A DNA stretch of 64,000 bases from Methylicorpusculum oleiharenae (GTDB taxonomy: Bacteria; Pseudomonadota; Gammaproteobacteria; Methylococcales; Methylomonadaceae), in the NCBI RefSeq assembly GCF_009828925.2, contig NZ_WUTY02000001.1, forward strand, positions 868,001-932,000, written 5' to 3'. The stretch's first letter is position 1; each line of letters starts with the position of its first letter. Shown one piece after another: positions 54,653-59,315 of this stretch. Position numbers and translations under genes: made by a program. Below the pieces are notes generated by a model. It made no database searches, was not told the origin of the DNA, and worked only from the letters and a program-made list of their open reading frames with translations.

Positions 54653-54696
54653 ACGGGATCAACGGAAATTCGAATATCCCGTTCCCAAACCATCTC

Positions 54697-54726
54697 ATTC
54701 CCAAGCTCCAGCTTGGGAATGCCTAC
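54697..54726. repeat. REP hairpin with CTAC tetranucleotide
   Basis: Perfect stem ATTCCCAAGCT-CC-AGCTTGGGAAT followed by CTAC at 54723-54726, which is GTAG read on the minus strand. GTAG at the foot of a hairpin is the mark of REP elements mobilised by RAYT enzymes. The following bases (CAAATTAAAGCTATGAGCCG) resemble the leader and start of the RAYT at 57756, so this may be a decayed REP/RAYT junction. Confidence 0.7.
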
Positions 54727-54838
54727 CCTCAAGCTCAGCTTGACGAACATCTGATTCTGATCAAATTAAAGCTATGAGCCGTACCTACCTCGCTGGATTT
54801 GCGAATAACCTAACAAATAAAGTATTGCACAGGTCTAT

Positions 54839-55105: not shown

Positions 55106-55135
55106 CTCGTTCCCAAGCTCCAACTTGGGAACGAG
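55106..55135. repeat. REP hairpin without CTAC foot
   Basis: CTCGTTCCCAAG (55106-55117) pairs perfectly with CTTGGGAACGAG (55124-55135) around GCTCCA-type loop sequence. The GTAG/CTAC foot is missing, so this is probably a lone or decayed copy of the same family. Confidence 0.65.
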
Positions 55136-56663: not shown

Positions 56664-56907
56664 ATGCAGTCCGGATACGCAAGCCATGCTGGATTGTCTG
56701 CGTCAGGCCGTCAGCAAAACGCTGGAACGCAAGCGCCGGTTAGGTCAATACGTGGTGCAATGGAACGGCAAAGCGCCTTTCGCGATTGGTGCGGTTCGCA
56801 ATCTCACCCAACCTTCGCCTACTTTTGGTTGGGCTGTTGCATTGGCACGTTCGAATCGTCTGTCGGGTTTTTATCTCGTTCCCAAGCTCCAGCTTGGGAA
56901 TGCCTAA
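56664..56907 (+). pseudogene. Frameshifted small gene fragment before the REP/RAYT array
   Basis: An ATG at 56664 with AGGAA upstream reads MQS, after which the frame goes off at CCGG; removing one base there continues as DTQAMLDCLRQAVSKTLERKR and on in the frame that opens at ATG 56686. The restored frame looks coding until it runs into the REP hairpin at 56875. It is probably a decayed gene of unknown function rather than a functional one. Sequencing error is the alternative. Confidence 0.4.
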
Positions 56908-56954
56908 CCTCAAGCTCTGCTTGACGAACATCTGCTTCTGGGCAAATTAAATCT

Positions 56955-57191
56955 ATGGGACGTAGCCGCTATAAAATTCTGAACGAAGCCTATCCTTACT
57001 TCCACACCTTAACGGTTGCTGGCTGGCAACCCGTTTTCACACGTCCGGAAAGTGTGCAACTATTGTTCGATAGTTTCATTTGGTTGCAGGAAAACACCGA
57101 TTTCAGACTTCATGCCTATGTTATCCTGGAAAATCACTTATCTCGTTCCCAAGCTCCAGCGTGGGAATGCCTAACCTCAAGCTCTGCTTGA
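56955..57191 (+). pseudogene. Truncated RAYT copy 1
   Basis: 78 codons: the first 62 match the full transposase (MGRSRYKILNEAYPYFHTL to ENHL), then 16 codons come from the following REP hairpin (SRSQAPAWECLTSSSA). It keeps H61 but loses H63 of the HUH motif and the whole catalytic remainder, so it cannot be an active nuclease. Whether the short peptide is made is unknown. Confidence 0.85.
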
Positions 57192-57221
57192 CGAACATCT
57201 GCTTCTGGGCGAATTAAATCT

Positions 57222-57458
57222 ATGGGACGTAGCCGCTATAAAATTCTGAACGAAGCCTATCCTTACTTCCACACCCTAACGGTTGCTGGCTGGCAACCCG
57301 TTTTCACACGCCCGGAAAGTGTGCAACTATTGTTCGATAGTTTCATTTGGTTGCAGGAAAACACCGATTTCAGACTTCATGCCTATGTTATCTTGGAAAA
57401 TCACTTATCTCGTTCCCAAGCTCCAGCGTGGGAATGCCTAACCTCAAGCTCTGCTTGA
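57222..57458 (+). pseudogene. Truncated RAYT copy 2
   Basis: Same structure as copy 1 (62 transposase codons plus 16 REP-derived codons). It carries private silent changes (CCCTAACGG and CACGCCCGG) that keep the protein identical. Confidence 0.85.
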
Positions 57459-57488
57459 CGAACATCTGCTTCTGGGCAAATTAAATCT

Positions 57489-57725
57489 ATGGGACGTAGC
57501 CGCTATAAAATTCTGAACGAAGCCTATCCTTACTTCCACACCTTAACGGTTGCTGGCTGGCAACCCGTTTTCACACGTCCGGAAAGTGTGCAACTATTGT
57601 TCGATAGTTTCATTTGGTTGCAGGAAAACACCGATTTCAGACTCCATGCCTATGTTATCTTGGAAAATCACTTATCTCGTTCCCAAGCTCCAGCGTGGGA
57701 ATGCCTAACCTCAAGCTCTGCTTGA
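57489..57725 (+). pseudogene. Truncated RAYT copy 3
   Basis: Same structure as copies 1 and 2; shares CAGACTCCATG with the full-length gene, marking it as its closest neighbour. Confidence 0.85.
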
Positions 57726-57755
57726 CGAACATCTGCTTCTGGGCAAATTAAATCT

Positions 57756-58289
57756 ATGGGACGTAGCCGCTATAAAATTCTGAACGAAGCCTATCCTTAC
57801 TTCCACACCTTAACGGTTGCTGGCTGGCAACCCGTTTTCACACGTCCGGAAAGTGTGCAACTATTGTTCGATAGTTTCATTTGGTTGCAGGAAAACACCG
57901 ATTTCAGACTCCATGCCTATGTTATCTTGGAAAATCACTTGCATTTTATTGCGAGCGGTAGCCAGCACAGCAAACGCATCCAACAATTCAAATCATTTAC
58001 TGCCAGACAAATTCTCGATTTATTAGAACAACGCAAGGCAACAACTTTTCTTAGCTATTTTGCGTATTACAAACGCAAGCACAAAACCGAAAGCCACTAT
58101 CAATTCTGGCAAGAAGGGTCACATCCGGAAGAAATGAATAATGACACGATGCTGATGCAACGCTTAGCCTACATTCATAACAATCCTGTCAAACGTGGTT
58201 ATGTGGACTTGCCAGAACATTGGCGTTATTCAAGTGCGCGGGCTTATGCGGGTAAAGACGCTTTGTTGCCTATCGTTTTGCTCTATTAA
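57756..58289 (+). CDS. REP-associated tyrosine transposase (RAYT)
   Basis: 177 residues. It belongs to the Y1/HUH transposase group (IS200/IS605 relatives) that binds and cleaves REP hairpins. The HUH motif is H61-L-H63 in ILENHLHFIAS; a conserved YIHNNPVKRGYV with candidate catalytic Y139 and WRYSSARAYAG follow. The ATG lies at the end of the fourth 267-bp unit, with REP hairpins on both sides (57676 region and 58311-58339), the usual single-copy RAYT layout. It looks intact and possibly active. Confidence 0.92.
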   Translation: MGRSRYKILNEAYPYFHTLTVAGWQPVFTRPESVQLLFDSFIWLQENTDFRLHAYVILENHLHFIASGSQHSKRIQQFKSFTARQILDLLEQRKATTFLSYFAYYKRKHKTESHYQFWQEGSHPEEMNNDTMLMQRLAYIHNNPVKRGYVDLPEHWRYSSARAYAGKDALLPIVLLY

Positions 58290-58310
58290 AATACCAAGCA
58301 GAGCTTGAAG

Positions 58311-58339
58311 GTAGGCATTCCCAAGCTGGAGCTTGGGAA
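58311..58339. repeat. Inverted REP hairpin with GTAG foot, 3' of RAYT
   Basis: GTAG (58311-58314), GCA, then the hairpin TTCCCAAGCT-GG-AGCTTGGGAA (58318-58339), in the orientation opposite to the array copies. This is the complete GTAG-plus-hairpin REP that RAYT enzymes recognise. Confidence 0.75.
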
Positions 58340-58453
58340 CGACGCATAAGACGCATAATTGGGGTGAGAGCATCGACTGGATTTAGAATAGTTAGAGAAC
58401 TACAATGATAGTGGACTCATTTTCCCTTCGCGGAATTAGCTAAAATCTTGAAT

Positions 58454-58834: not shown

Positions 58835-59315
58835 ATGAACAAATTACATCGTTCAAAATGTGAATATCCCTACTAGTAGCTAAACCCTGCATTTGCTTCT
58901 TTTACACCACAACTCACGCATACACTATTTCATTTAAATCCGTTCAGCCCATAGGATGCGGTGACAATAGGAACCGCATCAATCGCGACAGATGCGGTTC
59001 GTGCCTCACCGCATCCTACCGCCCTAACCGTCTGCAACAGATATGTTGCTGAGAGGTGCAGGGATGTATTCACGTGTCCTTTGAAATCAAGCATCTACGC
59101 CCTCAATTCAAAGCAGGCGATTAGTTGCTAAAATTAATTTTGCCGTTGAGGGTTTATTAGCGGACAGGCAACTTTAAAACTTAAACAAATCCACTTTCCT
59201 GGCTTTATTCCAAATCCATTGAATAGATTAAAAATGCAACATCGCATGGATTGATGTTGCAACCTATACTTGGTTCATTTGCATACATATCATAAAAATA
59301 CAAAAGGAATCTGCA
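58835..59315. other. Intergenic region before chemoreceptor
   Basis: 481 bases with no gene. It holds a 67-bp perfect palindromic element (58952-59018) and should carry the promoter of the chemoreceptor near its right end. Confidence 0.4.
58952..59018. repeat. 67-bp nested palindromic repeat element
   Basis: Perfect outer arms TAGGATGCGGTGA (58952-58964) / TCACCGCATCCTA (59006-59018) and perfect inner arms GAACCGCATC (58971-58980) / GATGCGGTTC (58991-59000). Core words like AGGATGCGGTGA are typical of small dispersed proteobacterial repeats. Confidence 0.65.

What the first reader, a model, noticed from the sequence alone, without database searches (positions are those of the whole stretch)
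56873..57940. Head-to-tail amplification of REP plus RAYT 5' fragments
Four nearly identical 267-bp units each join a REP hairpin to the first 62 codons of a RAYT; the first three are truncated, the last continues into a full gene. RAYT genes normally occur once, flanked by REPs. A regular array suggests slippage, rolling-circle or target-side copying linked to the enzyme, or a decoy/regulatory function for the truncated peptides (which share the enzyme's N-terminus).
Basis: partly seen in the sequence, partly recalled or inferred. Interest (0 to 1): 0.78.

Follow-up and report, generated by a model that had tools for sequence, protein, structure and literature searches.

The report
REP-anchored array of truncated RAYT genes
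A relative of methane-eating bacteria carries four head-to-tail copies of a hairpin joined to the start of a domesticated transposase gene, and related genomes show the same kind of hairpin-anchored duplication several times over, so it looks like a recurrent by-product of the hairpin system and not a device of its own.

Summary
The join is not an assembly error: the exact junction also occurs in a sister MAG with two units; a third congener has one. Partial tandem duplications joining a REP to one end of its RAYT recur: 9 of 98 distinct RAYT loci including the window. In all 7 events that I could resolve, one breakpoint lies 0-8 nt past the REP stem, on the side away from the gene; the other is at varied positions in the gene. 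Best reading: a REP-foot cut-and-join, by the RAYT itself or by hairpin-promoted slippage (not separable here), made two units; unit-unit recombination took the window to four. The pieces look like passengers: all three 78-aa ORFs are identical and lack the second HUH histidine and the tyrosine; the sister's truncated copy is frameshifted. Tandem 'REP plus flanking DNA' is published; capture of the RAYT end was not described in the passages I read. New variant of a known kind, moderate interest.

The parts
56873..57139 (+). Unit 1: REP with perfect stem + leader + RAYT codons 1-62 (truncated)
57140..57406 (+). Unit 2: REP with one stem mismatch + leader + RAYT codons 1-62 (truncated)
57407..57673 (+). 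Unit 3: as unit 2 (truncated)
57674..57940 (+). Unit 4: as units 2-3, runs on into the full gene
57756..58289 (+). RAYT (TnpAREP), 177 aa, with HUH motif H61-L62-H63 and Y-motif Y139-x-x-x-N143-P144
56955..57191 (+). 78-aa ORF of unit 1: RAYT 1-62 + 16 residues read from the next REP; lacks H63 and Y139
57222..57458 (+). 78-aa ORF of unit 2, protein identical to the first
57489..57725 (+). 78-aa ORF of unit 3, protein identical to the first
58295..58342 (+). Downstream REP, canonical sense (GTAG-GCATTCCCAAGCTGGAGCTTGGGAACGA), inverted relative to the array REPs
54692..54783 (+). Upstream remnant: REP + RAYT leader to just past the start codon, 89% identical to the unit
55107..55134 (.). Solitary REP palindrome with feet on both sides

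Best explanation
It is a REP-anchored tandem duplication in two steps. Step 1, older than or shared with the sister lineage G002: the outer foot of the left REP was joined to a point inside the RAYT gene (between codons 62 and 63, in the HUH motif), giving REP+5' fragment followed by REP+full gene. I think the likeliest agent is the RAYT itself, a Y1/HUH protein of a family that cuts single-stranded DNA beside its REP and can rejoin the free 3'-OH to another cut; here one cut lay at the REP foot and the other inside its own gene. Step 2, in the window's lineage: unequal recombination or slippage between 267-bp units raised two units to four and homogenised them. The truncated copies are by-products with no shown function. 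Shown: the array, the junction in two genomes, the recurrence, the REP-side breakpoint, and unit numbers 1/2/4. Inferred: the enzyme's part, the order of events, lack of function.
For: Direct repeats taking in a RAYT end: 10 of 109 loci scanned, 8 distinct after removing two duplicate pairs; with the window, 9 of 98 distinct loci. The scan did not ask for a REP, yet in 7 of 7 resolved events (window and L063 counted once; L106 left unresolved) the outer and junction copies agree through the REP stem and part 0-8 nt beyond it, on the foot side. The gene-side cut can be placed right after CA in 5 of 7, Monte Carlo P 0.0065, post hoc; TnpAREP of Marinomonas cuts at CT or CA beside the REP, guided by GTAG (PMC8266576, passages; introduction). 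Window and G002 share the exact junction, with no similarity found between their immediate flanks; short homologues of both left flanks that lack a REP (102 bp at 79%, 94 bp at 76%) stop within 1-2 nt of the REP foot. W2-W4 share a REP base absent from W1 and both G002 units: expansion after the split.
Against: Two of 7 events (L044, L124) do not fit CA. Window, L068, L041 and L075 share 2-5 bases between REP foot and gene, as microhomology-driven slippage would. I first looked for CT, then CA, so the P value is not a clean test; the numbers of allowed placements were set by hand, and L118 is blurred by later changes. The array REPs carry TTAG, not GTAG, and units 2-4 a stem mismatch, which may impair recognition. 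No activity of this RAYT is known to me; in its own genome this REP lies at 7 places, all in one 3.7-kb stretch, so there is no sign of dispersal there. The 98 loci were chosen by likeness to the window's RAYT, and 12 of them have less than 400 bp on one side.
Confidence: 0.45

Rival explanations
1. Hairpin-promoted replication slippage without any transposase. After copying gene end and REP, the new strand folds the REP hairpin just behind its 3' end, lets go and re-anneals at a short match inside the gene, so that gene end and REP are copied again. The array then grows by unit-unit recombination.
For: It predicts a breakpoint just past the stem on the foot side, as seen in 7 of 7, and short shared bases at the join (GGCAA in L068, CAAT in L041, GCAA with one extra A in L075, AA in the window). 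REP hairpins fold well. Nine further TRF arrays with a REP-like hairpin but without RAYT lie in 7 of the same 98 loci, so RAYT sequence is not needed.
Against: The window event has only two shared bases and L044 none. It does not predict CA at the gene-side cut where the foot lacks CA, as in the window.
Confidence: 0.42
2. A selected array: truncated RAYT peptides or extra REPs act as decoy, dominant-negative or regulator of the full RAYT.
For: Three truncated ORFs are open and identical, and the four coding differences among the units change no amino acid.
Against: The truncated copy of G002 is frameshifted and G001 has none. Three of the four variants also occur in the sister genomes, so conversion can explain them. 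The peptide lacks H63 and Y139. Other events duplicate the 3' end. No expression data were seen.
Confidence: 0.06
3. Assembly artefact.
For: A tandem repeat of 1068 bp is a classic place for errors; reads were not available.
Against: The units differ at 6 positions, the genome is in 3 contigs, and the exact junction is in an independent MAG. Only the copy number could be wrong.
Confidence: 0.04

Closest known systems
REP clusters and BIMEs with co-amplified flanking DNA (Di Nocera et al. 2013, PMC3733652; Bertels and Rainey 2011, PMC3116915)
   Different: Here the flanking DNA is the start of the RAYT gene; [quoted passage not shown] and the REP is not dispersed in this genome.
REPs inserted inside tnpAREP genes, subclass 2.4 (PMC6006769, section 12)
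   Different: There the insertions keep the reading frame of one gene; here the join ends the frame and belongs to a head-to-tail array.
TnpAREP/RAYT REPtrons of E. coli, Stenotrophomonas and Marinomonas (PMC8266576, PMC2817692)
   Same: Y1/HUH protein gene between inverted GTAG-tagged REPs; cutting beside the REP is known in those systems.
   Different: Those are described mostly as single-copy genes with 'no evidence of tnpAREP mobility' (PMC8266576, introduction); here gene ends are duplicated and the cassette lies behind different flanks in sister species.

Membership tests
RAYT / TnpAREP (class 2 Y1 HUH) | NCBIfam REP_Tyr_transpos model above its cut-off | tested here: met
   99.2 bits, cut-off 80, for the full gene; truncated ORF 34.4, below it
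RAYT / TnpAREP (class 2 Y1 HUH) | HUH motif and Y---NP motif (PMC6006769, section 19) | tested here: met
   H61-L62-H63, Y139, N143 and P144 invariant in 15 of 15 aligned sequences; of the 19 first chosen, L041, L069, L075 and L089 were left out
RAYT / TnpAREP (class 2 Y1 HUH) | Relation to the solved TnpAREP structure | tested here: met
   Profile of A1 finds 4er8, E 1.4e-6; single-sequence phmmer found nothing at E 0.001
RAYT / TnpAREP (class 2 Y1 HUH) | Pfam Y1_Tnp at gathering score | tested here: not met
   15.3 bits against 23 for the window protein; 14 of 15 A1 members hit it at E up to 1
RAYT / TnpAREP (class 2 Y1 HUH) | Gene flanked by inverted REPs tagged GTAG | tested here: met
   Inverted REPs on both sides; right one GTAG, left ones TTAG, so the tag is met on one side only
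REPtron with dispersed REPs | Many REP copies scattered in the genome | tested here: not met
   7 places in 5.85 Mb, all within C1:922692-926342; M. buryatense G011 has 58 hits per strand at up to 3 mismatches, which takes in other stem variants
REP cluster / BIME | REPs repeated in tandem with flanking DNA | tested here: met
REP cluster / BIME | Alternating REP/iREP orientation | tested here: not met
   The four array REPs point the same way; only the downstream REP is inverted
IS200/IS605-like mobile element | Same element at different sites with defined ends; empty sites | tested here: inconclusive
   Different flanks in three congeners with ends at the REP foot; no clean two-sided empty site, and neighbours may have moved instead
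IS200/IS605-like mobile element | Single-strand cutting and circle formation | not testable with these tools
   Needs biochemistry

The most novel reading that the evidence does not exclude
The junctions are natural records of RAYT strand transfer in vivo: the enzyme cuts the REP at its 3' foot and its own gene at a CA-like site and joins them. In Methylococcaceae RAYT cassettes, whole or internally deleted, still behave as mobile elements with ends at the REP feet, against the view that tnpAREP is not mobile.
Probability: 0.28. Interest if true: 0.65.

Novelty: new variant of a known kind. Interest (0 to 1): 0.38.

Why it matters
How RAYTs spread REPs 'remains to be elucidated' (PMC8266576, introduction). 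REP-to-RAYT junctions that recur with a fixed REP-side breakpoint give a set of natural products to test that mechanism against. If they are slippage products instead, they show that REP hairpins can duplicate what lies beside them, including their own enzyme gene.

Tried and rejected
CT as the gene-side cut, as in E. coli, was my first idea from three junctions read on the gene's strand; the REP's own strand gave CA for 5 of 7, and CT is dropped. Clean empty site: the flanks of the mini-cassette L164 were compared with G000 and G002; the right flank starts at the REP foot (GAACA|AATTC in both alleles without the cassette), but the left side is rearranged, so mobility is not shown. Decoy peptides: see rivals. 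Strain name: the first 6 kb of each of the two smaller contigs, searched in PLSDB, gave no near record (the tool says records of the window's own genome may be left out); the organism is known only as a congener of MAGs labelled Methylicorpusculum and Methylomicrobium. RAYT relatives on plasmids: 5 of 72,556 records, none above 60% identity, so no plasmid link to this RAYT. L106 (5' type, scrambled) was left out of the breakpoint counts. The RAYT subclass was not settled. Papers 10.1093/gbe/evx146 and PMC3333891 are not held.

Full report
What is there. TRF reports one tandem array in the window, 56871-57940, period 267, 4.0 copies, 98% matches. Each unit is a REP, a leader of about 30 bases and RAYT codons 1-62; three end in a stop read from the next REP and the fourth runs into a 177-aa gene. 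The full protein passes NCBIfam REP_Tyr_transpos (99.2 bits, cut-off 80), has H61-L62-H63 and Y139-x-x-x-N143-P144, invariant in an alignment of 15, and its profile finds the TnpAREP structure 4er8 (E 1.4e-6). It falls short of the Pfam Y1_Tnp gathering score (15.3 of 23). The break lies inside the HUH motif: the 78-aa products keep H61 and lose H63 and Y139.

The genome and its neighbours. The window lies in a 3-contig genome of 5.85 Mb. This REP occurs there at 7 places, all within C1:922692-926342. Five more distant RAYT-like genes exist at 25-32% identity. The three genomes held of the genus have the RAYT between a parB-like gene and a gene that looks like a chemotaxis receptor (names from my reading of the ORFs, not from a family search), with 4 (window), 2 (G002) and 1 (G001) units. 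G002 has the identical junction CACTT|ATCTCG. Across 237 genomes of the family the 22-base junction is exact only in the window's genome (3) and G002 (1); 6 other genomes have one hit each at 3 mismatches, against 2 hits for the reversed-pattern control.

History of the units. The four units differ at 6 of 267 columns. Units 2-4 share a base that breaks the REP stem (fold -10.9 for unit 2 against -14.2 kcal/mol for unit 1) and is absent from unit 1, from both G002 units and from G001. So two units came first and the growth to four followed in this lineage. The four coding differences within the window change no residue, but three of them also occur in the sister genomes, which suggests conversion between copies and not selection on the pieces. 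The truncated G002 copy carries a one-base insertion.

Recurrence. I held 109 RAYT loci from two searches and compared each with itself. Ten had direct repeats of at least 60 bp taking in at least 20 bp of the RAYT gene; two pairs are the same contig, leaving 8. With the window that is 9 of 98 distinct loci. The 5' end is duplicated in the window, L063 and L106, the 3' end in L068 (Methylotuvimicrobium buryatense 5G), L041, L044, L075, L118 and L124. TRF on the same 98 loci reports 22 arrays with period 60 or more and at least 1.8 copies: 6 overlap the RAYT (window, L063, L068, L075, L124, L041), 9 (in 7 loci) hold a REP-like hairpin but no RAYT, 7 neither. TRF did not report the RAYT-end repeats of L044, L106 and L118, and the hairpin pattern missed the diverged REP of L075. 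The RAYT arrays thus look like a subset of a more general REP-plus-flank amplification.

Breakpoints. Read on the strand where the REP begins with its GTAG-like tag, the junctions are: window GGGAACGAGATA|AGTG (gene ATGCA|AGTG), L068 GAGGCA|AGAAGG (gene TGGCA|AGAAGG), L041 GAGACA|ATCCC (gene CCCA|ATCCC), L075 GCGCA|AAGAAG (gene GGGCA|AGAAG), L118 GGGGCA|GCGC (gene GGTGCA|GCGC), L124 GATGA|ATATCC (gene CTT|ATATTC), L044 CAGAGTAATG|CGCGG (gene GTGAAA|CGCGG). In 7 of 7 the outer copy and the junction copy part 0-8 nt after the stem. Gene-side cuts can be placed after CA in 5 of 7; Monte Carlo P 0.0065, with placements set by hand and the motif chosen after looking. In 49 other REP feet (those that a strict pattern found in the 98 loci) the bases 5-10 nt past the stem are rich in A (0.35-0.63, about 0.27 further out), so the array's join looks like an ordinary REP edge.

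Two mechanisms fit. In the first the RAYT cuts the REP foot and its own gene and joins them; TnpAREP proteins studied elsewhere cut single-stranded DNA at CT, or CT and CA, beside the REP and can transfer strands (PMC8266576, passages, introduction). In the second the new strand's REP hairpin lets the polymerase slip back to a short match in the gene. Both put the break just past the stem. The window's join has only two shared bases and a CA in the gene that is not in the foot, which leans to the first; joins such as L068 with five shared bases lean to the second. I give 0.45 and 0.42.

Does the cassette move? In the window's genome, G001 and G002 it sits behind different sequences, and short homologues of the left flanks of the window and G002 that lack a REP stop within 1-2 nt of the REP foot. 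The last unit with the gene is 97.5% identical between window and G002 (unit 1 against one G002 unit 99.6%), while the parA-parB stretch is 94.4% and the receptor stretch 89.5%, which suggests later exchange. Internally deleted cassettes (REP+leader, RAYT 3' end+REP, in three of the four with another repeat between) lie at four further loci, G001:C81 and C74 and G002:C136 and C68. But no clean two-sided empty site was found, and insertions beside a fixed cassette could also change its flanks, so mobility is not shown. No close relative of this RAYT was found on plasmids (5 of 72,556 records, all under 60% identity).

Against the literature. [quoted passage not shown] PMC6006769 (sections 12, 19, 30, passages) reports REPs inside tnpAREP genes of subclass 2.4 and no evidence of class 2 mobility; PMC3116915, PMC2817692, PMC3686654 and PMC8049555 were read as passages only. 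None of the passages seen describes arrays of REP plus RAYT fragments; in the searches no listed title or abstract start does, in a library that lacks most subscription journals. I file it as a new variant of a known kind.

Noticed in passing
window 55107-55134: A solitary REP palindrome with feet on both sides, where G001 has a full RAYT and G002 a 94-bp REP+leader; it may be a scar of deletion between the two inverted REPs of a lost cassette. The right flanks differ, so this is not proven.
   Followed up: partly
L164-L167 (G001:C81, G001:C74, G002:C136, G002:C68): Internally deleted RAYT cassettes: REP+leader at one end, RAYT 3' end+REP at the other, in three of the four with another short repeat in the gap. 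They resemble non-autonomous derivatives.
   Followed up: partly
window 58949-59020: A 72-bp dispersed repeat family that also sits inside three of the deleted RAYT cassettes of the sister genomes.
   Followed up: no
window 59031-59126: A 96-bp repeat with about 30 listed matches in G001 and about 20 in G002 (a capped list).
   Followed up: no
L068 2495-2953 (M. buryatense): The RAYT of M. buryatense also has a 128-bp direct repeat upstream, besides the 3'-end duplication.
   Followed up: no
G004:C26:35733-36979: Two full-length RAYT genes in tandem, starting 725 bp apart, with the same match score.
   Followed up: no
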